A DNA stretch of 64,000 bases. Origin: Candidatus Altimarinota bacterium (GTDB taxonomy: Bacteria > Patescibacteriota > Gracilibacteria > BD1-5 > UBA2023). How positions within the stretch are numbered: position 1 is the stretch's first letter; each line of letters opens with the position of its first letter. The translations under genes and the position numbers were made by a program. The notes under the pieces were generated by a model that was given only the letters and a program-made list of their open reading frames with translations, had not been told where the DNA came from and ran no database searches. The stretch spans positions 1 through 64,000 of the forward strand of contig JAQTWP010000005.1 in the NCBI GenBank assembly GCA_028689205.1, read 5' to 3'. Positions 26,748-64,000 of the stretch are shown piece after piece.

Positions 26748-28895
26748 ATGGCAAAACATATTGAAGAACAAAGTCCCTGGGTTAATGAAGAGTCCAATAT
26801 TGCTTCAGATTCCCTTTATGAAAGTAATATTGGTGAAATTGGTTATAATGATTATCAAATAGCTTCGAATAAAAAAACTATTAAAAATCCAATTTCATCT
26901 TCTCAACTTTGAGATCCAAGTACTACTACCAAAATTCCTTCAAGTTCTGTATGGAAAGAGTTTTTAAAATTCTTAGCTTTTTTGCTTCTGATAATTGGAA
27001 TTGTTTTTTTTATTGCTTATTTATTTAATAAAAACGCACCAACTACTAATTACAGATGAATTATCAAAAAAACTGATATTAACAAACTTAATTCAAAAGA
27101 TTATATTACCGAAGATATTGATGATGAATACTATGAAATAAATACAACTAATAAGGATATTATAAATAACAGCGCAGTTGAGAAGGATTCATTTTTTGAA
27201 TTACAAGCTGCACCTATAAATAATCTTCCAACAAATAGTTGTTCTTGAGCGGATGATTGGGATAAAAAAGCATTATGAGATAATGAATTCGTAGATGATT
27301 ATATTCAAAACAGTAAAAAAATTACAAAAGTAGCAATAATTGATACTTGAATTAATACGAATTTAATTGATTTTAAAGATAATATAGATACAAAAAATTC
27401 AATAAATATTGTAGAACCAAAAGAATCCATAGATGATAAAAATTGACATTGAACAAACATTGCTCTTATAATTCATAGATATGTAAGCACTACTAATTTT
27501 GTTATAATAAAAGCTAATTCAAAAGATAGTAAAAAAATATCATACATTGACACTATAAAATCTATTAATTATGCAATAAAACAAAAACCAGATGTTATTA
27601 ATATAAGTTTTGGTTGAGATATTAAAAAAATTAAACCTCTTCAAAATTCTATATCTAGAGCCAATTCTATTTGAATTATTATTGTAGTTTCTTGATGAAA
27701 TTCTAATTCCGATAAAATTAATCATTTCCCAACCGCATATTCTTGAGTGATAACTACATGAAGTTTTAATGATAAAAATTCAATTTCTGAATTTTCAAAT
27801 AAAACTTCTGATTTTAATTTTCCTGGAGAATGTATATCTACAGCCAATAATGAATTTGTTAACGGAAACAGTTATTCTGCACCAATTCTTTCTGCTACTA
27901 TATTAATGATTAAAATGTTTATTCCTGCAGGAACTTGAAATATTTATTATTCAGATTTAATGAAATCAAATAGTAATAATATAGGTTGATTATTAATTCT
28001 AAGTATTCCCAAATTATTGAATATTTCAGACGATAGTGATGAATATATCAAAAACTTAGAATGAATAAAAAAAGATATAAATAAAACGAGCTTATTTCTT
28101 GATGATTTTAAAGAAAGTATAACCATAGATTCATCTCTTGATTGATATGAAAAAGCTTTGAATACTTTCAAATCTCAATTCAATAAGACGCAAAACGATA
28201 TATTAACAAAATTATCAAGATTAAAAAAGATTTTCAATAAAAAATGAATTACTCTAAAAAACGATGATTTAATTATTGCTGAAATTAATAATGATTTAGC
28301 AGTTGTTAGGGCGTTTTTAGAGTGAGATAAAGTAATTCTAGATATAACATGAGAAAAAAAGCTAGCGCAAACTCTGTGAGTAGATTCTTGTATTGAAAAC
28401 ACCAAAAATATTAAGTGTTGAGAGGGTAGTGGTTCAATATCTAATAAATGTATGAATAAATTCGCTTGATGAAAAAATCTTGTTTGTTGAGTACTAGTTC
28501 CTATTATCAAAGCTTGAACTCAACTTCCTGCGGTATGAAGTTGAAAATATGTAACAATTCTTAATGATCAAGTTAATTTACCAATTTCTATTATTGAATG
28601 AGAAAGCTTTATTTCAAGAGATAATAAACAAATTTGAAAAGTTATCCTAGAAAAATTACCAAGGAAATCTGCCTGAGAAGCTTGATGAAATGTTAATTTT
28701 ATGATTGATTCAGCTTGAACTCTTTCTGTAAAAGTTATAGACATTAATGATAATAATAATGAAGTTCAATCAAGAATAGAAAAACTTCTAAGTACCGAAA
28801 GTTCTAATCAAATAAATTGAGATTTACTAAAAAATACAGAAAAAATAAATGAAATCCAGAATATTCTTGAATTATCCTTAATAAAACTTAATTAA
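26748..28895 (+). CDS. Membrane-anchored subtilisin-like protease fused to an Hsp70-type substrate-binding domain
   Basis: A 715-aa protein. A disordered N-terminus (1-70) precedes one TM (72-93). A peptidase S8 domain (about 190-395) has the full triad: Asp199 in VAIIDTG, His234 in NGHGTN, Ser375 in GNSYSAP, and oxyanion Asn318 in SGGN. A helical linker (430-515) follows. Residues 528-670 align by eye with the DnaK substrate-binding beta domain: VILDITGEKKLAQTLG, GVLVPIIKAGTQLP, DNKQIGKVIL and VNFMIDSAGTLSVKVIDIND. A ~30-residue insert holds cysteines 548, 557, 568 and 580. No Hsp70 ATPase domain is present. Fused function (substrate capture plus cleavage outside the cell) is inference. Confidence 0.88.
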
Positions 28896-42029: not shown

Positions 42030-44768
42030 TTATTTATTATTAAGAGTCATTTTTACTATTTCAAGAACACCAGAAAGGACTTTATAAAGGCCTTCATCAT
42101 TAGTAGTATTTTTTCATGCTAAATCAAGTGTATCAGATAATATTGATTCAATACTAGCTTTTTCATCTTCATGAAAAAAACTTTTTTTGTCAATTACCAT
42201 TTCTTCCAAAGATTGTAAAGATAGTTCAGGAGAATTCAGAATTTTATTTCTATACTCAATTTTTTTTATACTTTCTAATGAATCACTTTCTCATCAAGAA
42301 TATATTGCTCTCATAATTTCCTCTTTTGATAATTCTCAATCAAGTATTCTTCTTATTTCTGCAAGTGATCTTTTTTTCTTAGGAGCCTGTAAACTTCTAG
42401 ATACTCTTAAAACTTCTTCTAATGTTGTAGAATAATCAACTGCTTTCAAAAATCAATCTTCTATCATAGAAGTCATTCCGAATTCACGTGCAAGATCTTC
42501 AATTTCTTTTGCTGTACCATTACTTATAACTAATTTTTTCAAGGTTTCATTTACGCATAATAGTTCATAAATTCCTATTCTTCATTTATATCATGTATAA
42601 TTACAATGATCACATCATATTCATTTTTTGAATTTTATTTTTTTATTTTTAAGTAATTCATCAAGATCTTCAATCATTACTCTGAAAAAATCCAGTACAT
42701 CATCTTTTGGTTTATATTCTTCTTGACACTGAGGACATATTTTCCTTACAAGTCTTTGTGCGATTATAGAAACCAATGTAGAAGATAACATAAATGGTTT
42801 AACTCAGAGATCTCCAAGTCTAGTTATTGATGAAGTTGTATCATTTGCATGTAGGGTTGTAAAAAGAAGATGTCATGTAAGTCACGCACCCATTGCAATT
42901 GATGCAGATTCTGAATCTCTCATTTCTCAATACATTATTATGTCTGGATCTTGCCTTAGTATTGATTTTAGAGCTTGATTATAACCAATTCATTGTTTTT
43001 TTCATTCAGAAATTTTAATTTGAATAACTCAATCTATTATATATTCTGGAGGGTCTTCTGCAGTAACAATATTAACTCACTCTTTATTTAGGTAATTAAT
43101 TGTAGAAAATAGTGTTGTAGTTTTTCAACTACCAGTTGGTCAAGATACTATAATAATTCATGAAGACATTGAAATAACTTTTTCATACTTCATCATTATA
43201 TTTTTACTCATTCATAATTGTTGGAATGTCTGAACTTCATCATTTTGTACTAGAAGCCTAATTACCATTTTATCTCAATAAAGAGTTGGTATTATAGAAA
43301 TTCTCAAATCTACATACTGATTTTTATCTTCATAAAAAACTCTAACTCTTTCATCATGTGTTGCAAAAGGTTTCCAAGCTTCAGAAAATTTAAAGTAATT
43401 TTTTACTGCACTTAATAACACACTTTTACTTTCTGCAGGAAATTCATTTAATTTTATAAGTACTCAATCTATTCTATATCTTACAGCCATTTTTTTTTCA
43501 AATGGTTCAATATGAATATCTGAAGCCCTTTGATCAATTCCAATTTTAATTATATTCACGAATGCATTTATGCTATCATTGCTTGAAAAACTTTTATTAC
43601 TTATACGAAGCATAGGTACTCATTCTTCTGCTTCTTCTTCTATAATTTCTGATTTATTATGAATAGAATTCTCTAGTTCCTTTTTTGAGTTATGTGAATT
43701 TTTTATAAATGTATGAATTTCATTTTCAATTGAAAGTCAGAAAATAATTTTTATTTTTTTATTTATATAAGGTATTCTTTCTTCAGATTTTTTTCATTCA
43801 TTTAATTTTTGGTTTTTGATTCTTTCGTATTTTTCAAATCTGTTTACCAATCAATTGCTTAACGAACTAAGATCTTCTCTTTTTGGATCTGATATTAAAA
43901 TTGTATAAGTAATTTCTTTTAATACTTCATTTTCAATTTTTCAATAAGGCACAAAACTTAACTTAAATAATTCATCTTTTTCAAAACTAAAAAAAAGATT
44001 AATATCCATATATCAAATATCTGGCTTTATCCTTGTTAGTGAATGTTGTTTTGCTAATGCTCTTGTTAAAACTTCGGCATTTGTTACTTTCAAATTATTA
44101 ATAAGAATGTCTCATATTTTTTTATATGATTTTCTTTGGTAGTGTAATACTTTATCTAAATTTTCTTGAGATATAAATCACTCTTTTATTAGAATTTCTC
44201 CAACTCTTTTATTAATGCTTCTTTGATAATCTATATTTTCTTTTAAAACATCTTTTGTAATAAATCTGCCACTTAATAATACTTCTCAAAATGCTCTATT
44301 TTCTCTATAATGGATTTTTAATGCATTATCAAGATTATCTTTTGATATTAGTCATTTTTCAACGAGTAAATCTCATAATTTTTTATAATTATTTTTTTGT
44401 ATCTGCAAAGCTTTATCTAAATTATCCTGTGATAAAAGTCATTTTTCACAAAGTAGATATCAAATTGATTTATTATTTGTATTTTGAATTTCTTTCGCTT
44501 TTAAAAGATTATCTTGTGAAATATGTCATTCCATTACAAGTATTTCTCAAATCGGAACATCTATTCATAATTCATTAGCTACTCTGATGAATTTATTGGG
44601 GTCTATAAATTGTTGTTCTATTAGAATTTGAAGTATTGTTTTTTTAACTCATCTTGAAAAAAGCTCTGTTTGAAATGATAAAGCTTTTCACATACTAATC
44701 TCAGAAATTACTCATTTTTCAATAAGTAATTCTCAGATTCTCATTTTTCTGTTTACTTCTATGGACAT
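42030..44768 (-). CDS. PilB/GspE-type pilus assembly ATPase with many MshEN-like repeats
   Basis: A 912-aa ATPase for type IV pilus extension. The first ~300 residues hold about six repeats of the form GxLLxxxGxISxDNLxxAL, the MshEN (c-di-GMP-binding) pattern; most PilB proteins have one or two. The motor has GPTGSGKTTT (541-550), Asp box, Walker B, GAGLTGHLLFTTLHAND (His box) and the zinc site CPQC...CDHC. A Ser/Lys-rich C-terminus of about 150 residues follows. Many catalytic glycines are TGA. Confidence 0.94.
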
Positions 44769-45914: not shown

Positions 45915-48251
45915 ATGAAAATAAAATATAAATTACCAATTTTATATGCTCTAATATGAGTTATAGTTACACTTGGACTAGTAAATATTTTTTCCAATTC
46001 TGAAAAAACTATTATAACTAATATTGAAGATCGTTTTATCCAAACAATAAATAATAAATCATCTGAGATTGATAAATTCCTTTATGATCAGCTTGTTTGA
46101 CTAAAGTCTCTTTCTCTAAATTCTACACTTCAACAATCTATTTCTGATTATCAAAAAAACAAGAATATTTCTTCTATAAATATAGAAAACATATTAAAAG
46201 ATTTCCTTATAATTAATAAGACTTTTGATTATGCAGAGATAATTGATGCTAGCTGAACCGTATTGAATTGAAATGAAATATTATGAAAAGAAAATGTAGA
46301 TAAGTCTTTTGTTGTAAGAGAATCTATAATTAAAAGAATATGAAAAAGTGATGCTGGAGAAAAATATTATCAAGACATTACAAGTGAAATTAAAAATAAT
46401 TCAGTTGGATTATCATATATTATTGAGGATTTAGCTAGGGATTCAGATGGCAATACCTATCTTACTTATATAGTTCCGGTTTTGAAAAGTAATGAAAATA
46501 ATGAAATTAAACTTATATGAATAATTAAAGCCAGATTATCAATTGAGAATATTTCTAATATTTTCGTTGATTTACCTAATTTAGGAAATTCACTTAAAGC
46601 CTATATATATAATCCAAAATGAGAAATTATATCTTCTTTAGATAGAAATAATTATCTTACAAAATTAAGTAATATAAATGCTTCACAAGATAATATAATT
46701 AAAAAAACTCTTGTTCAAGAAGAAGTTCTAGATTGAGATAGTGTTGTTGCAGTTTATAAAAATATGAAAGGATATAAATCTTTTTCTTGATTGTGATGGA
46801 CTATAAAAATGACTCAATCAAAGAATGAATTATTCCAATCTCTTGCCTGATTAAAACAAACTTCAATATACGTTGTCGCATTTATTGTATTTTCTGTAAT
46901 GTTTTTAGCTGCGATAATACAATGGCAATTTATTAATCCTCTTAATAGATTACTAGGGAAAATACGTAAATTCTCAACAGGAGATGATAATGTAGTAATT
47001 GATATTGAGAGCTCAGATGAAATATGAGTTCTAGCATGAGCCTTCAATGATATGATTTACAAAATAAGAGAAAAAACAAAAATACTTAATGAATATAAGA
47101 ATGTTATTGATGCAACTAGTCTTGTGTCAAAAGTTGATCAAAGTTGAAATTTTATATATGTTAATGATATTTTTTGTAATAGTGCAGGATGTGAATTAAA
47201 AGAAATTATTGGGCAACCTCATCAAATAATAAGGCATCCAGATATTTGACCAGAAATATTTAAAGATATTGAGAAATCAATGAAAGCTAAAGAAATATGG
47301 AAATGAGTAATGAAAAACAGAAGAAAAGATGAAAGTGAATATTGGCTTCAATCTGTAATTGCACCAATTTTGGATATGAACAATAATATTGTTGAAATGA
47401 TACTTATTGAAACAGATATTACAGAACTTGAAAAAACTAAACAACAACTAGAAGTTTCATATAATAAACTTCAAGAATCGACAGATGAATTAGTTACTAA
47501 AGAAAGAATTTCAAAAGAATTCGAACTTGCGACTAAGATCCAAGAAGATTTTATGCCTAGACCTTGAGAATTTGACATTGAATGAGTTGAAGTTCATTGT
47601 TGACTAACGTCTGCAACAGAAATCTGATGAGATTTATACGATATCGTAAAAAGCAAGGAAGATCCATCTAAAACAATTTTTTATATATGAGATGTTACAG
47701 GCCATTGACTTATAGCTTGAATTATGATGGCAATTTGTAATTCTCTAATATATAGCCTTGCTCAAAGTTGAAAAAATTCAATTAGAGATATTATTATAAA
47801 ACTTAATAATACATTATTTCATAAACTACCAAGTAAAGTATTTATTACTCTTCTGCTTCTTCAATATGATTCAGCAACTAATAAATTATCTTACGCTTGA
47901 GCTTGACATGAAAGACTTCTGATATATCGTAAAAAGATAGATGAGATAGAAGAAATTAAAACTTGATGAAGTGCAATTTGAATGTTTGCAGATGCTACAA
48001 ATGATGTAAAAGTCAATGAACTTAATCTTGAATCGTGAGATATTGTTCTTATGTATACTGACTGAATCCCAGAAGCTCGCAATCCAGATGAACAATTTTA
48101 TTGAATGGAAAAATTCAAACAAAGTTTCAAAAGTAATGCACATAGGAATGTCCAGGCAATGTATGAATGAATACTTAAAGATCTTTATGATTTCATCAAC
48201 TGAGCAGAAATTCTTGATGATATAACATTTTTTTTAATAAGGAAAAAATAA
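45915..48251 (+). CDS. Membrane PAS-PP2C (RsbU/SpoIIE-like) phosphatase
   Basis: A 778-aa sensor phosphatase. TM1 about 7-27, extracytoplasmic Cache-like sensor to about 315, TM2 317-340, HAMP (NPLNRLLGKIRKFSTG), PAS (about 390-505, with IGQPHQIIRHPDIGPEIF), a coiled coil, and a SpoIIE PP2C domain from about 545. The Mg2+ site is GGDLYDIV (about 570) and GDVTGHGLIAGIMMA. It should reactivate the STAS protein when the sensor binds its unknown ligand. Confidence 0.95.
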
Positions 48252-50231: not shown

Positions 50232-50843
50232 ATGTTTCAAAGCTTAATTTCTTTTGATGTTAATATGCTTAATCTTATAATGTGAACAGTGAATCAGAAT
50301 AATTATTTTATGATTTCATTAATAAAAATATTTTCTGACTTTTGAGTTATTTTTGTTGCGTTGTCTTTGGTTTGATTATGGCTTTTTTGAGTGTATAGAA
50401 AAGATAATAAATATAAAAATATTTCATTAATGATTTTTTATACAATTGCTTTTAGTTTTATACTATATATTATCATTAATAAATGATTTCCGCTTAGACC
50501 CAGACCAGAAACTGTTTCATCAATCAGACCTCTTATTGATCATTTACCTGATAATAGCTTCCCATCAGGACATGCAATATTTGCTTGAGCTGCATTAGTT
50601 GGTTTTTTCTTTTTTTGGCCTAACCTAATATATTCTTCTATACTTATTATTGCATCTTTTTTGATGTTTTATTCAAGAATAGCGTCAGGAGTCCATTATC
50701 CATGAGATATTTTAGTAGGGTTTATTCTTTGAATTTTATTTTGATATATTTTTTATACAATCCAAAAAAATTTAAAATCACAAAAATTAATTAATAATAT
50801 AAACAAAAAGATAATTAAATTATTTTCTTTCATAAAATTATAA
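50232..50843 (+). CDS. PAP2 family membrane phosphatase
   Basis: A 203-aa phosphatidic-acid phosphatase type 2 protein with five to six TM segments. The three active-site motifs are KGFPLRPRP (C1), PSGHA (C2) and SRIASGVHYPGD (C3). It may dephosphorylate undecaprenyl pyrophosphate or lipid phosphates at the outer face of the membrane. 1 nt gap to the DedA gene, so both are one unit. Confidence 0.95.
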
Positions 50844-50844
50844 T

Positions 50845-51444
50845 ATGACACAGTTATTTAACAGTATATTAGCTTTTTTCTGAGGCTTAGATTATGCTTC
50901 GATTACTTTTCTTATGGCATTGGAATCTAGTATTTTCCCAGTTCCTTCAGAAGCAGTAATGATACCAGCTTGATACTTAGTTAATAAATGAACTCTAAGT
51001 CTCACGTTTGTAATTTTGTCATGAACATTATGAAGTGTATTATGAGCCATAGTTAATTATTTTGTATTATGACAATTTTTAGGTAAACCTTTTTTATTGA
51101 AATATTGAAAATATATTCTTATAAAAGATGAAGATTATCATAGAACAGAAAAACTTTTTTTGAAAAATGATAAATTGTATACTTTTTTATGAAGATTAAT
51201 TCCCGTAGTAAGACATTTAATATCGATTCCTGCTTGAATTTTTCAAATGAGATTTGATTATTTTGTCTTAATTACAGCACTAGGTGCTTGATTATGGTGT
51301 ACAATTTTGACTTTTTTAGGTTATTATTTTTGAGAAGATATAGTTGTTATAATAGAAAAATATACCAAGACTATTTGAATTGTATCAATATTTATAGTTT
51401 GATTTTATTTGTATTATAAAGTTTTTAGGACAAAAAAATTATAA
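50845..51444 (+). CDS. DedA/SNARE-associated family membrane protein
   Basis: A 199-aa DedA protein. Conserved features: FLMALESSIFPVPSEAVMIPAGYL (E and P motifs) near the start, GSVLGAIVNYFVLG, and FLGRLIPVVRHLISIPAGIFQMRF with the conserved Arg (FxGRxxPxxR). These proteins act as flippases or proton-dependent transporters for undecaprenyl phosphate. The pairing with PAP2 fits C55 lipid-carrier recycling. Confidence 0.95.
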
Positions 51445-51530: not shown

Positions 51531-53129
51531 ATGAATTTTCTTAAAAACAATAATAATTTTAAATTATCTGCATTTACCCTAGTTGAATTAATAGTGGTAA
51601 TAGTTATTCTAGCTATATTATCCACTATAGCATTTCTATCATTTAATACCTATTCATCTTCTGCAAGAGATTCATTAAGAGTTACAAGTATTTCTGATAT
51701 CCAAAAATGATTGGAGCTATACAATCTTAATGCATGAAATTTTCCCCAACCAGAAAATATAAGTTGAACTTGAGTAATTAATTGAATTACATTGAATTAT
51801 GTCTGAGAGATATCAAATTTAATATCAAGAAAAATTAATATTTCATCTTCTCCAAAAGACCCACTTTCTAATAATGATTATATTTATTGAACAACTTTTG
51901 ATTATAAGAATTATCAAATAGCAACAGTTTTAGAAAACTCTCAAACAAATAATAAAATAATAGAATTAACTTATGCGGATAACTGAAACAGGGCAAAAGT
52001 TAGTTGAAATTACAATTGACTTATTAAATTCAGCTCTTGAAGTATAAAATATATAATTAATCTTCCAGGTCTTATATTCAATAGTTGATGAACAATTGAT
52101 ATTATTAATCAAGAACCTTATTTCATAATTAATAATTATGATAATTTACCATATAAATTGACTTCTAATAGTATTATTAATAATAAAACTAAAATTGAAA
52201 CAATTAAGGAATTAACTTGAAAAGATGTTATTCTAACTTGAGTTATAATTAATGAAACTCAAGATCAATTAGATTATTTATCTAATTTACTTTGATATGA
52301 TAAAATCTTGGTTTGAAAGAAAATTTTTTGAGAAAAATATATTATGACCATAGTTAATCTAAAAAAATTATGAATTTATTATTGATATCCAAGTTCACTT
52401 AATAATGTTTCAAATTGATATCAACTTGATAAAGTTGTCAATGATCTTAATAAATTTGACACTATAATACTCTGAGAATGATTAGAAAAAATATGACATT
52501 CTGATCATATTAATACGCAGAATATTTTATCTTGATGAACAGATTGGTATGGTACGCGGCAATGATATAAATGAGAGCCGTATTGATATATATCATTAAT
52601 GCAATCTACGTGATCAATTTTTACTTCAGTTGATGAATGGAAAGCTTTATGAATTAAATGAATATTTTTAGATGAAGCTTGATATGATTATCTAATTCCA
52701 ACTATTAGCTCAATTGAAATAAATGCTAGAATTCATCAAAACGATGTTATAAATTATATTCATCAGAAATGATTAAAAATTATTATAAATTCATGGAATG
52801 TAGATGATGTTTTTTGAACTCTTAATTGAGAGGCTATATCTACTATTAATTCAAATGATTCATACTTAATGGAAAGCTTTGTTTATAATTGGAATGTAGC
52901 TTGATTCTATGATTATGATAATCAATTAATAAAAATAAATAGTGCAAAAAATTATAAAAATAATTTATGAATTAAGCTTTACTGTGTTTGATTATTACCT
53001 AATTTTATAGATATAACTCAAGATAGAATCAATACAATGTATTCTAAGTCTTTATCAAGTTGTGATTATATTCAAATTACAGAAAAAACTTTTTGAGCAA
53101 CCAATCCTATTCTTAATTCTTATTATTAA
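51531..53129 (+). CDS. Type IV prepilin-like protein with a C-terminal glycosidase-like barrel
   Basis: A 532-aa protein. The N-terminus is a prepilin: SAFTLVELIVVIVILAILS (residues 13-31) with the F-T-L-V-E core and Glu5, then a pilin-like head up to about 170. From about 278 on, a (beta/alpha)-barrel-like part begins LGIYYGYPSSL and has DTIILGEGLEK, KGIFLDEAGYDY and a GLKIIINSWNVDDVFG strand; this matches spherulin-4/GH114-type putative glycosidases. Possible catalytic Glu/Asp in FLDEAG. A pilus- or surface-displayed enzyme is inference. Confidence 0.85.
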
Positions 53130-53137
53130 TATAACTT

Positions 53138-56100
53138 ATGAATTTTAAAAGAGATTACATTTTTAAAACAAAACAAGCTCCTTTAAATTCACTTTTTTTA
53201 AAAAAGAATGAATTTAAAGGTTTTACAATAATTGAGCTTACTATTGTAATGGTTATTACTTCTATATTAACTACAATTTGATTTATTGTTTATTCTTGAC
53301 ATCTTTCTTCTGCAAGAGATGCTAATCGTAGTATGGATATGGAGAGTCTTATAGGTTGACTTAGAACATCTAAAATTCGTAATTTCACATACCCTAAATT
53401 AAATGATTATTTTTCAATTGCTAATATGTGAAGCTGATATGTAATGCAATGAAAACTAGATGATAAAATTGATATTGAATGAATTAATAATGTTCAATCA
53501 GACCCTTTACATGAAATTAAATATATATATTCTACAACGAGTAATTGAAGGAATTTTCAAATATGAATGACTTTAGAAAATTGATGAACTCCAATTGCTT
53601 TTGTTGATTGAGATTATAAAACTATTACAAAAAGAATGTTTCCTTCATTAATATTTGCATTAAATTGAAGTTGAATTCTTGATGTTCAGTCTTGAGTTGG
53701 TTCTTATACTTCCTATAGAGATTATTTCGTAGTTAATAAATGAACTTACAATCTTCCATATGATTTTAAAACAGGAAATCCAATTAAGACAGCATTAAAT
53801 TTTGATAACATAGTTAATGAGGATTGAGTAATAATTACATGAGCTAATAGTTATAAAAGTTGTGATGAGATTTATAATGCAAATAAATCTATGTGACCCT
53901 GAGAATACCAATTAATGTCATCGCCCTATATAATGAGTGATACTATATGTTTTTATATATCACCACTTCTAGTATTTGATGAAAATACTAATCTTTCTAC
54001 TCTTGATGACACTACTTTAAAAAATCTATTTTCTGAAACATTAACCTGAGTTGTTGAGAACACGCTAACAGATAAATGGGATATTAATTGATGTAGTTGA
54101 GGCTTAATGAATGTTAATACGTGAACCTTTTTATGATGAAATCAAACATTATCTAATATAGTGTTATCATCAAATACAATATATAAAGTTCCAGCAGGGA
54201 ATTATAATTTAATATGAAACACACAATTAAATACCTGACATATATCTTTTGCAAGTTGAAGTAGTTGTATTTGATTAATTTGAGCTTGAGTTTGATCTAC
54301 AATTTTCACTACTAATTTAACTTGAGGTTGAATATCTAATTACGATTGAGTTATTAATGCAAGATATACAAAAAATATAATTGTAAGCTGATTATCTCTT
54401 ACTAATTCAAGAATAATTAATAGATATAATTATTGAATTATGGTAAGTAATTGAGCTAATAATCTTACTTTGAAAGATATTAATTCATCTAATTCTCAAT
54501 CATGATGAATATCACTTGATTCATATAATGATCATAATTATATGTATAATATAAACTCTTTTAATAATGGTCAGAATTGAATTACAATTTCATATTATGC
54601 GAATTACAATAAATTAGATAATATAAAGAGTTATTCTAATTCCTGAGCATGATTATTGGTTTCTACAAGTGTCGGTAATAATTTATTTAATATAAATACT
54701 TATTCTAATTGAAATTATTGAATTAATTTAGATTCATCTTCTAATTTAAATACATTAGATAATATAAAAAGTTATCTTAATTGATGAAACGGTATTTGAA
54801 TAACTTATAATTCAGACCAGAATACAATAAGTTGAGCACTTAGTTATTCTAATAATTTGAACTGAATACTTATTGATTCTAACTGATCATGAAATATCTT
54901 GAATAATGTTAATTCTTATTCAAATAGTCAAATATGAATCATCTTAGATTCTACTAAAAACACTAAGATTAATAATTCAATAATTTATTCAAATTGAAGT
55001 GATGGAATTAATATTTTCTCTTGAATATCAAATACATTAAGTTGAATAACAACTTATTCAAATTGAAATAATGGTGTTAATATATATTTTTGAATTACAA
55101 ATACATTTAGTTGAATTATAAGTTATTCTAATGTTTCTAATTGACTTTATATGGATACTAGTAGTTGAAATATTATAAATAATACCACATCTAATTGAAA
55201 TGGTAATGCTTGAATTTTACTTAATAAATCAACATATAATACATTAAGTTGATTAATTACTTATTCTAATAGTAATAACTGAATTAATTTTTATAATGTA
55301 AGTCAATATAATAATGCTAACAACATTACTTCTTATTTAAATACCTGAGCTTGAATTAATTTTGATAACGGATCTTTATCTAGTAACTATAATTCAATAA
55401 ATAAATTCAATTCATATTCAAATACTAATTGAATTTATATTTGATCATCTTCTTATAATAATATATTTAATTGAAATATTTATAATAACATTCAAAGATG
55501 AATATTTATTTATTCTATATGAAATATTTTAAATAATTTGAATATATATAATAATAATACCTCAAATACTCTTTATTATGGTTCTATTGAAATCGATGCT
55601 TCTTCAAACGGTAATAAATATAATTCATTAAATAATTTGAATATTTATAATAACTCAAAAAATTGAATGGTTATAAATGCTAATAGCGACAGTAATTTAT
55701 TTAGTAATTTATCAATATTTAATAATTCTTGAGCATGAGTGTATGTTTCATCTTGAGTTGGAACATGAACATTTAATAATTTAAATACCTATAATAATAT
55801 TAGTTGAGTAGAAGATTACGCAAATGTACTTACTAATAAATATTATTGAACTTTTAAATATTTTTGAAATGATTGAAATTCTAATATTACATATCTTAAA
55901 GTATGAACTTTGTCTACATTATGATTCTTAGATTGAACAATAAATACAACATGAACAATGTCTTGTGATTACCATAATAATCCTAACAATGCTTTTTATT
56001 ACTGAGCTAGCTGTATCAATAGATGATCTATTTGAAGTCTTGTAGCACCAATTTTGAATTATACTTATTGAACTTTAACATCCAAACAACAAAGACCAGT

Positions 56101-56194
56101 TAAATGGAATTGAACAGCTTGGGAATTATATTGAACAGCTTGAGTTGATTATAATACATGAAGTTATATATGACAATGGTTGATAATTAAATAA
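53138..56194 (+). CDS. Type IV prepilin-like protein with a large beta-helix
   Basis: A 1018-aa protein. Prepilin signature KGFTIIELTIVMVITSILTT (about 28-47) after an unusually long leader of 27 residues. The pilin head (60-250) is followed by a right-handed beta-helix (about 324-905) of ~22-residue turns rich in Asn/Ser/Gly (NSYSNSxxGIxxDSSxxNxxxN), as in NosD/pectate-lyase PbH1 repeats. A short C-terminal domain ends YIGQWLIIK. It overlaps no gene and begins 8 nt after the preceding pilin. Adhesin or glycan-binding role is inference. Confidence 0.9.
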
Positions 56195-56221
56195 TATTTT
56201 TTATTTTTAACTTTTATTTTT

Positions 56222-57037
56222 ATGATAACTAAATTATTTTCTTGGATTCTAGCTTGAGTCTTTATGCTAAGTCCTTTTGTAGCTAGTGCTGAATATGGTA
56301 TTTATTATTGAACAAGTCAAAAATACGCAAGTAAAACAATCTGATTTAATACAATGATTATCCAGCCATATAATATTGGCTTGTACGAAAATTATACTGG
56401 AAAGAAAATCTGCTATCTTACGGTTGGAGAATTTGATTGAACGGCAGATGAATTAAAAACTCTATGATTAGATTCTTCAAAAGTTTGATTTAACGAGACT
56501 TGGAATAGTTTTATTATGGATATGAGTAGTATTAAACGGCAAGAATATTTAATTAAAGAAGAATTAAAGCTAAAAAATATGTGATGTAATTGATTATTCC
56601 TTGATACTATCTGGCAAGATTGACAGCAAGAATGATGAATACAAATAGTAAAAAAAATGAGAGAAAATTGGAAGGAAGCATACATTATTCCTAATAATGC
56701 ACATTTTATAAGATATGACATTTTAGGTTATATTAATGCTTTTATGTTTGAGAATTTTTGGGAAACTAAAACCACAGTATGAAGTGAAGATGCTCTTTGG
56801 TTAGAAGAACAAATGCAAGAATATCAAAAATTAGTTAAATGAACTAATGTAAGATTAATGGCAATTAGTTATTGAAATCCATTTGTTACAAGAAATAAAG
56901 CTTGGGCGATTAAAGCATGACAATTATCTCTTAAATATTGATTCGAACAAATTTATACTAACACTTATCTGACTAATATTTATTGATACGTAAGTGTGTC
57001 AAATAGATCAATTAAGAAATTACCTTGAGTTAAATAA
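56222..57037 (+). CDS. Secreted GH114-like (endo-alpha-1,4-polygalactosaminidase type) protein
   Basis: A 271-aa protein with a signal peptide (1-23, cleavage after VASA). The body is a TIM-barrel of the GH114/TM1410 type: ICYLTVGEFDG near 63-73, SFIMDMSSIKRQEY (about 96-109) and GLFLDTIWQ (about 124-132) with putative catalytic Asp. Substrate not established; family members cleave galactosaminogalactan. Follows the beta-helix pilin by 27 nt. Confidence 0.82.
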
Positions 57038-62946: not shown

Positions 62947-64000
62947 ATGAAAGACAATAAACAAACTCCTTATACATTAAAAAATCCTTCCTCAACTCTA
63001 AAATCTATATTTTGATTCACTCTCACAGAACTAATTATAACCATAGCAATTCTAGCAATCCTATCTACAATTGCTTTCCTTTCATTAATTAACTTCCAGT
63101 CTTCTGCTCGTGATTGAGTAAGAGTAAGTGATATTAGTATGCTTACCAAATCAATGGAAATGTCTAGGATTTGATTATGAAGCTTTCCTTTACCTGATAA
63201 TGCTAAAGAAATTACTTTCAAATCATGAACAGTCTGGACACAATGAAATATTTCAGATTGAGTAATAAGACTTTTAAAAAACTTCAGTAAAAAACCATTA
63301 GATCCAAAATATGAAGTAGAATATTCATATTCTCTAACAACTAACAAACAAGAATATCAAATCTGAGCAATCTCAGAAAAGAATATAGTATATAACTACA
63401 GATCTCCCCTTATTGAAAAAGTTTATGCTTCAGATATTTCCTCAGATTGATTACAGGCATATACCAAATGAAATTATGATCAATTGTTTGTTTCTTCCAA
63501 AGTATGATGAGAATGTTATCTTGTCGCAACTCCATCTCTAATGCTTTCTAGTCTACCAACTTCACTTAAGCTTGAAGATGCATGAAGCAGTGATCTAGTA
63601 TTCAAATGAGAATGAAATCTTCCTTTGTCATATGAAAATCTATCTACCAATAAATCTTTAACTTGATCTTTTGTATTCAAAGATTTTAATGATCCCAGTG
63701 TACTAATATATACATGATGTTTCTTACCAGAAACCCTAACATGAGTACTTGTATTTGCTTCTGATACAAAAAAAGCTTATGAATGAGTTACTTTAAGTAA
63801 CGGCTGACTATCTGATGAAATATCAACAACAATAAATGCTGATAGTCTAGTTAGATTGGGTGTATGAATAGTTAATAATAATCTAAAAACCAAGTGACTT
63901 ACATGAGATAAAATAATAATAGACTATTCAACTGCAATAATGCCAAATTTCACTTGTACAGCTCAACCCATTATGTCTCATGCCAATAGCTTCACTATTT
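62947..64000 (+). CDS. Type IV prepilin-like protein (partial at window end)
   Basis: At least 351 aa, open at the window end. Prepilin signature FGFTLTELIITIAILAIL (about 22-39) with FTLTE core, head start FQSSARDGVRVSDISML as in the 51531 pilin. The stretch up to 150 (SGTVWTQGNISDGVIRLLKNFSKKPLDP) is shared in plan with 51531 (PKDPLSNNDYIYGTTFDYKNYQI-type). Beyond 150 it is a beta-rich part with no known domain. It has its own strong promoter. Confidence 0.9.

What the first reader, a model, noticed from the sequence alone, without database searches (positions are those of the whole stretch)
51531..57037. Prepilin domains used to display a glycosidase-like barrel and a beta-helix
Two consecutive proteins start with a class III/IV prepilin signature and continue into very large domains (532 and 1018 aa) not found in major pilins. 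A secreted GH114-like protein follows on the same strand. Inference: a surface glycan-processing apparatus displayed through the type IV pilus machinery.
Basis: partly seen in the sequence, partly recalled or inferred. Interest (0 to 1): 0.7.

Follow-up and report, generated by a model that had tools for sequence, protein, structure and literature searches.

The report
Pilins carrying glycosidase-like and beta-helix cargo
A tiny bacterium (Candidatus Gracilibacteria, which reads the stop codon TGA as glycine) builds pilus subunits with large extra domains on their ends, one related to enzymes that cut biofilm sugars, which may help it work its way through the sugar coat of neighbouring cells.

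Summary
Under genetic code 25, 51531-57037 encodes three co-directional genes 8 and 27 bases apart. ORF1 (532 aa) and ORF2 (1018 aa) are prepilins above Pfam's N_methyl cutoff; ORF3 (271 aa) is a secreted GH114/PelA-like protein. All lie in a 1.25 Mb Gracilibacteria-type genome with one prepilin peptidase, several pilus ATPases and about 32 prepilins, some 20 with a large C-terminal domain. They are 'modular pilins', a known kind. New here: (1) the ORF1 cargo is a distant Spherulin4 (GH135-type) relative with invariant candidate acids D381 and E448; the same family occurs as secreted bacterial proteins and in phage tail-fibre-type proteins. (2) 18 own-genome prepilins share an identical 24-aa stem with divergent synonymous codons; cargo moves between carrier types. 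(3) The ORF2-ORF3 pair is conserved in another family of the order. Families GH135, GH114 and GH166 all cut alpha-1,4-galactosamine polymers, so the likeliest role is cutting or gripping a Pel/GAG-like matrix of neighbours. Verdict: a real new variant of a known kind; function inferred.

The parts
51531..53129 (+). ORF1: modular prepilin with Spherulin4/GH135-like cargo, 532 aa (code 25)
51531..51572 (+). ORF1 leader peptide (14 aa), predicted cleavage after Ala14
   Evidence: Ala at -1 occurs in other prepilins of the genome
51573..51644 (+). ORF1 24-aa stem FTLVELIVVIVILAILSTIAFLSF, identical in 18 prepilins of the genome
51645..52361 (+). ORF1 pilin head plus connector ('carrier'), homologous to carriers of other modular pilins
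52362..53126 (+). ORF1 cargo, residues 278-532, Spherulin4-like
52671..52673 (+). Asp381, candidate catalytic nucleophile (GIFLDE motif)
   Evidence: 39 of 39, but the motif was part of the search pattern; role inferred from PMC12054363
52872..52874 (+). Glu448, candidate acid/base (LMESF motif)
   Evidence: 39 of 39; not part of the search pattern; role inferred
53138..56194 (+). ORF2: modular prepilin with right-handed beta-helix repeats, 1018 aa
53222..53293 (+). ORF2 stem FTIIELTIVMVITSILTTIGFIVY, after a 28-aa leader ending in Gly
54107..55852 (+). ORF2 beta-helix repeat region, about residues 324-905, period about 24 aa
55853..56191 (+). ORF2 C-terminal tail, conserved in G031
56222..57037 (+). 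ORF3: secreted GH114/PelA (GH166)-like protein, 271 aa; signal peptide MITKLFSWILAGVFMLSPFVASA by inspection
56603..56605 (+). ORF3 Asp128, candidate nucleophile (GLFLDT motif)
56750..56752 (+). ORF3 Glu177, candidate acid/base (MFENF motif), aligned with a Glu of PelA
50845..51444 (+). context: VTT/DedA-family membrane protein; a VTT gene also lies next to ORF3 homologues in two other genomes
50232..50843 (+). context: PAP2-family phosphatase
62947..63999 (+). context: start of a further modular prepilin (1600 aa, continues beyond the window to 67746 of contig C8), List-Bact repeats

Best explanation
ORF1 and ORF2 are low-abundance 'modular pilins': a class III signal peptide and a 24-residue helix let the type IV pilus machine process and assemble them, and a pilin head plus connector holds a large C-terminal cargo outside the cell, probably at or near the pilus tip. 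The ORF1 cargo is a Spherulin4/GH135-like domain with candidate catalytic acids D381 and E448. The ORF2 cargo is a right-handed beta-helix, probably a glycan-binding or docking rod. ORF3 is exported by the general (Sec) route and is a GH114/GH166-like enzyme that works beside, or docked on, ORF2. Together they cut and grip an alpha-1,4-galactosamine-type (Pel- or GAG-like) matrix polysaccharide of a neighbour or host, clearing a path for this probably host-dependent cell. Shown: gene structure, prepilin signatures, domain families, conserved acids, shared stems, carrier/cargo exchange and ORF2-ORF3 pairing. Inferred: assembly into pili, tip position, catalysis, substrate, target and host dependence.
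For: Prepilin signatures above cutoff. Own genome has Peptidase_A24 just over its cutoff, 8 T2SSE and 8 T2SSF matches. 18 prepilins share an identical 24-aa stem with 17 distinct 72-mers, median 59/72 identical bases, so the protein, not the DNA, is held fixed. The prepilin C6_127315, close to an ATPase gene on C6, has a TGA fraction of glycine codons of 0.08, like translation genes of the window (0.10-0.33, assigned by inspection), against 0.95 for ORF1 and 0.85 for ORF2, which fits a highly expressed major pilin and rare minor pilins. Cargo: Spherulin4 hits in 9 of 12 family members, best 2e-6; reciprocal hit of the family profile on a bona fide Spherulin4 protein, E 3e-5. E448, D443, R400, Y284, N291 and W370 are invariant in 39 sequences although outside the search patterns. 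The family also occurs in phage tail-fibre-type proteins. ORF3 matches PelA and its homologues pass the GH114 cutoff. The ORF2-ORF3 pair is conserved. GH114, GH135 and GH166 are all endo-alpha-1,4-galactosaminidase families (PMC12054363), and fungal GAG clusters carry GH135 plus GH114 (PMC11356417). No PelF-family gene in the own genome.
Against: No structure could be predicted. The Spherulin4 scores are below Pfam's cutoff (best 28.0 against 30.2), the ORF1 cargo alone has no Pfam hit, and no solved structure was found by sequence. Profile comparison of the ORF1 cargo with ORF3 is weak (probability 19% or less). ORF1 occurs apart from ORF2-ORF3 in G010, G020 and G070, so the trio may be a local coincidence; one shared genome among about 150 relatives is little co-occurrence. 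Ala at -1 of ORF1 is less usual than Gly. Conservation of D381, E382, D386 and N420 is partly built in by the search pattern. A binding-only role is possible. The genome is about 94% complete, so absence of PelF is not certain.
Confidence: 0.5

Rival explanations
1. Pure adhesins: modular pilins whose cargo binds host glycans without cutting them, with the barrel used as a lectin.
For: Other own-genome pilins carry LamG, LRR, cadherin-like and Fib_succ_major cargo, typical of binding; in Streptococcus sanguinis PilB the cargo is an adhesin (PMC8179133), and in TM7x PilX2, a pilin with an extra C-terminal domain, contributes to host binding (PMC12206443). Phage tail fibres, where the family also occurs, bind receptors.
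Against: The candidate catalytic acids are invariant across bacterial, phage and Gracilibacteria members (with the stated bias for D381); free-standing secreted homologues in several phyla look like enzymes.
Confidence: 0.27
2. Processing of the cell's own surface polysaccharide, as PelA and Sph3 do in Pel and GAG biosynthesis.
For: GH135, GH114 and GH166 enzymes sit in biosynthetic clusters (PMC11356417, PMC9894940); PAP2 and VTT genes lie just upstream and glycosyltransferase-like genes a few kb downstream (by inspection).
Against: No PelF-family gene in the genome; no synthase or deacetylase seen in the immediate neighbourhood; placing the enzyme on a pilus suggests a target away from the cell.
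Confidence: 0.12
3. Domain shuffling with little selected function: pilin carriers pick up phage-derived surface domains as a changing antigenic or receptor coat.
For: Exchange of carrier and cargo, patchy distribution (3 of 147 relatives with a good match), relatives in phage tail-fibre-type proteins.
Against: 55-60% identity of the cargo across genera with conserved candidate active-site residues; the carrier-cargo junction region is conserved between ORF1 and G070.
Confidence: 0.08
4. An ordinary pseudopilin-dependent secretion system in which ORF1 and ORF2 are large pseudopilins that help export ORF3.
For: N-termini also match GspG-type models weakly; ORF3 is encoded beside ORF2 in two genomes.
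Against: ORF3 has its own signal peptide and, in a cell presumed to have a single membrane, needs no further export step; cargo-bearing pseudopilins of this size are not part of known type II systems (own knowledge).
Confidence: 0.03

Closest known systems
Modular type IV pilins (Streptococcus sanguinis PilB and PilC; TM7x PilX1 and PilX2 as pilins with extra C-terminal domains; PMC8179133, PMC12206443)
   Same: class III signal peptide and hydrophobic alpha1 helix followed by a pilin head and a large C-terminal functional module
   Different: cargo is a Spherulin4/GH135-like domain or a beta-helix with a paired secreted glycosidase-like protein; some 20 large variants in one small genome, most sharing one stem
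GH135 Spherulin4/Sph3 (fungal GAG N-acetylgalactosaminidase)
   Same: Pfam PF12138 similarity, GIFLDE motif, candidate Asp/Glu pair, external membrane-tethered placement
   Different: sub-cutoff similarity only; tethered by a pilin stem, in a bacterium, activity untested
GH114 (Ega3) and GH166 (PelA hydrolase domain)
   Same: ORF3 matches PelA chains, its homologues pass the GH114 cutoff, Asp128 and Glu177 align
   Different: free-standing 271-aa secreted protein without deacetylase domain or pel cluster, paired with a beta-helix pilin
ETEC CofB/CofJ (minor pilin plus secreted partner at the pilus tip, as described in PMC8179133)
   Same: a large minor pilin with a secreted partner protein
   Different: ORF3 is glycosidase-like; no sequence relation was tested; physical docking is a hypothesis
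Phage tail fibres and tailspikes with glycan-degrading domains
   Same: the ORF1 cargo family is found in phage tail-fibre-type proteins; beta-helix is a common tailspike fold (own knowledge)
   Different: here mounted on type IV pilin carriers in a cell

Membership tests
Modular type IV pilins | N-terminal class III prepilin signature (N_methyl) | tested here: met
   ORF1 23.6 and ORF2 23.5 bits, cutoff 21.2
Modular type IV pilins | extra C-terminal module not specific to pilus biology | tested here: met
   Spherulin4-like cargo; Beta_helix
Modular type IV pilins | assembly machinery in the same genome (prepilin peptidase, ATPase, PilC) | tested here: met
   peptidase only marginally over cutoff (26.6 against 26.5 bits)
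Modular type IV pilins | incorporation into filaments | not testable with these tools
   needs proteomics of sheared pili
Spherulin4 / GH135 (ORF1 cargo) | match to Pfam PF12138 above its cutoff | tested here: not met
   best family member 28.0 bits against 30.2; ORF1 cargo itself no hit: related, not filed as a member
Spherulin4 / GH135 (ORF1 cargo) | catalytic Asp and Glu | tested here: inconclusive
   D381 and E448 invariant in 39 relatives, but correspondence to Sph3 residues not shown by structure
Spherulin4 / GH135 (ORF1 cargo) | (beta/alpha)8 barrel fold | not testable with these tools
GH114 (ORF3) | match to Pfam PF03537 above its cutoff | tested here: inconclusive
   ORF3 itself no hit; two close homologues 33.7 and 30.8 bits, cutoff 27
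GH166 / PelA hydrolase (ORF3) | sequence homology to the PelA hydrolase domain with catalytic Asp and Glu aligned | tested here: met
   E 1.6e-10 to PelA chains; D128 and E177 aligned with Asp and Glu
GH166 / PelA hydrolase (ORF3) | endo-alpha-1,4-(N-acetyl)galactosaminidase activity | not testable with these tools
   needs an assay
Right-handed beta-helix (ORF2) | Beta_helix repeats above cutoff with regular period | tested here: met
   54.1 bits, cutoff 25.9, 5 stretches; 24-residue period

The most novel reading that the evidence does not exclude
Gracilibacteria use type IV pili as a retractable display platform with exchangeable tips: one conserved stem and carrier set, many cargos, including glycan-degrading domains of the same family that phages mount on tail fibres, so that the pilus acts as a cellular counterpart of a phage tailspike that cuts through a neighbour's matrix before attachment or predation.
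Probability: 0.3. Interest if true: 0.8.

Novelty: new variant of a known kind. Interest (0 to 1): 0.58.

Why it matters
If the ORF1 cargo is active, it would extend modular pilins from adhesion to glycan cutting on a pilus, and would suggest how cells with tiny genomes and a probably host-dependent life get through the matrix of other cells. The set of prepilins with one frozen stem and exchangeable cargo offers a natural system to ask how pilins are engineered by evolution, and the link to phage tail-fibre-type proteins gives a testable shared toolkit for surface glycans. It also makes concrete, cheap biochemical tests possible without culturing the organism.

Tried and rejected
Table 11 reading rejected. 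Direct sequence link of the ORF1 cargo to solved structures: none (a homeobox hit at E 0.23 is chance). Profile link between ORF1 cargo and ORF3: weak. GH114 family in the class: 22 of 353 genomes; no prepilin-type N-terminus was found in the ORFs of the fetched GH114 loci. Relatives of ORF3 in viral contigs: none. A phage origin of the cargo in Gracilibacteria is not shown: in the tree the Gracilibacteria rows are one group (100/100), but their place between phage and bacterial rows depends on the root. Recent gene duplication or gene conversion as the cause of identical stems rejected, because synonymous sites differ. Promoter scan uninformative: fewer hits than in shuffles. No paper with both 'spherulin' and 'tail fiber'.
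Full report
What is there. The window is contig C8, bases 1-64000, of a 1.25 Mb genome in 16 contigs, 94% complete. Its relatives in the same family are named Candidatus Gracilibacteria in public records. Genes read properly only with TGA as glycine: 14 ORFs of at least 100 aa with table 11, 91 with code 25, and TGA codons of ORF1 coincide with glycines conserved in standard-code homologues. At 51531-57037 three genes follow each other 8 and 27 bases apart on the + strand: ORF1 (532 aa), ORF2 (1018 aa) and ORF3 (271 aa).

Prepilins. ORF1 and ORF2 pass the N_methyl cutoff. ORF1 has Ala before the cleavage site and ORF2 has Gly; Ala at this position recurs in several other prepilins of the genome, so it does not argue against processing. 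The genome has Peptidase_A24 (26.6 bits against a cutoff of 26.5), 8 T2SSE and 8 T2SSF matches, one T2SSE inside the window (42033-44768, minus strand). I count 32 prepilin genes, 22 with a mature length over 250 aa (after leaving out one duplicate and one spurious ORF). A count of 30 by the six-frame family search is within the range of relatives (3 to 76), so the number is not exceptional.

Carrier and cargo. Pfam finds different cargos on these pilins: Fib_succ_major (several), Laminin_G_3 (three), LRR_5, Lcl_C, FecR, cadherin-like, fibrinogen-C-like, List-Bact repeats, and Beta_helix in ORF2. Eighteen prepilins share an identical 24-aa stem, coded by 17 different 72-mers with a median of 59 of 72 identical bases: selection on the protein, not recent copying. 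The stem of ORF1 is nearer to co-resident pilins (32 of 35) than to the stems of the orthologous fusions. The region between stem and cargo is also shared: the ORF1 carrier is 37-43% identical to the carriers of pilins with LRR, cadherin-like, Lcl_C and weakly Fib_succ_major-like cargo. In G010 (and the near-identical G020 fusion) the same cargo (59% identical to that of ORF1) sits on a different carrier, whose nearest relatives in the window genome are Fib_succ_major and LamG pilins (38-42%; 26% to the ORF1 carrier). Hence cargo has moved between carriers. The fraction of glycine codons that are TGA is 0.08 in C6_127315, 0.10 in the window's L25-like gene, 0.95 in ORF1 and 0.85 in ORF2 (window median 0.755). 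I read this, as inference, as C6_127315 being a highly expressed major pilin and the modular pilins being rare.

ORF1 cargo. Residues 278-532 recur, fused to a prepilin, in G010, G020 and G070; 3 of 147 relatives have a strong match. Thirteen further bacterial loci, from Acidobacteria, Blastocatellia, Terriglobia, a cyanobacterial, a Bacteroidota and two Latescibacterota MAGs, carry the domain without a prepilin N-terminus, mostly behind a signal-peptide-like N-terminus. Nine of twelve aligned members hit Pfam Spherulin4 (best E 2e-6, 28.0 bits, cutoff 30.2), and the family profile finds a bona fide Spherulin4 protein from another genome of the phylum at E 3e-5. The link is therefore real but distant. 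Thirty-four viral-contig loci also hold relatives: free proteins of about 310 aa, and domains within tail-fibre-type proteins with collagen, gp53-like and other tail or virion modules; one phage record annotates the protein as a tail fiber protein. In 39 sequences D381, E382, D386, R400, N420, D443, E448, Y284, N291 and W370 are all invariant. The search patterns contained the D381-D386 and N420 motifs, so those are biased; E448, D443, R400, Y284, N291 and W370 are not.

ORF2 and ORF3. ORF2 has five Beta_helix stretches and a 24-residue period. ORF3 has an evident signal peptide and matches PelA (E 1.6e-10; 1.7e-12 with the family profile); homologues from G031 and G041 pass the GH114 cutoff. 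In G031, of another family of the order, an 818-aa beta-helix prepilin (40% identical to ORF2) is directly followed by the gene for an ORF3 homologue (51%): the pair is conserved. In G041 and G070 the ORF3 homologue lies next to a VTT gene, as a VTT gene precedes ORF1 in the window. In G010, G020 and G070 the ORF1 fusion has other neighbours.

How it most likely works. Modular pilins are an established kind, in which a module is grafted on a pilin for display by the filament (PMC8179133); in TM7x a pilin with an extra C-terminal domain contributes to host binding (PMC12206443). GH114, GH135 and GH166 are all endo-galactosaminidases with a common barrel, Asp nucleophile and Glu acid/base (PMC12054363), and ascomycete GAG clusters hold a GH135 with a membrane segment beside a GH114 (PMC11356417). 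The window combines a GH135-like domain on a pilin stem with a secreted GH114/GH166-like protein. The simplest reading is a pilus-borne and a secreted glycosidase for a galactosamine-type matrix. The genome has no PelF-family gene, so a foreign matrix is the likelier target; Gracilibacteria are thought to be host-dependent (PMC11452946). All steps from assembly onward are inference.

Limits. The relation between ORF1 cargo and ORF3 is not shown by profile comparison. Co-occurrence of ORF1 and ORF3 among relatives is weak. Absence statements hold for incomplete genomes and sampled species.

Noticed in passing
62947-63999 (continues to 67746 of contig C8, L047): A third prepilin in the window starts here: 1600 aa with Listeria-Bacteroides repeats (PF09479), cut by the window end.
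   Followed up: partly
42033-44768, minus strand: A 912-aa protein with a T2SSE ATPase domain and a weak DUF4388 match in its N-terminal half; no PilC-type match was listed on this contig.
   Followed up: partly
L138-L171: The ORF1 cargo family is common in viral contigs, in tail-fibre-type proteins, and has no PHROG of its own among the free-standing members tested.
   Followed up: partly
26748-28892: A subtilase (Peptidase_S8) protein with a C-terminal stretch that matches HSP70 (E 4e-8), an unusual combination.
   Followed up: no
45915-48251: A 778-aa HAMP-PAS-SpoIIE phosphatase a few genes upstream of the pilin genes.
   Followed up: no
own genome, all prepilin genes: The TGA share of glycine codons varies from 0.08 to 1.0 between prepilin genes and is low in translation genes: a possible expression marker in code-25 genomes.
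   Followed up: partly
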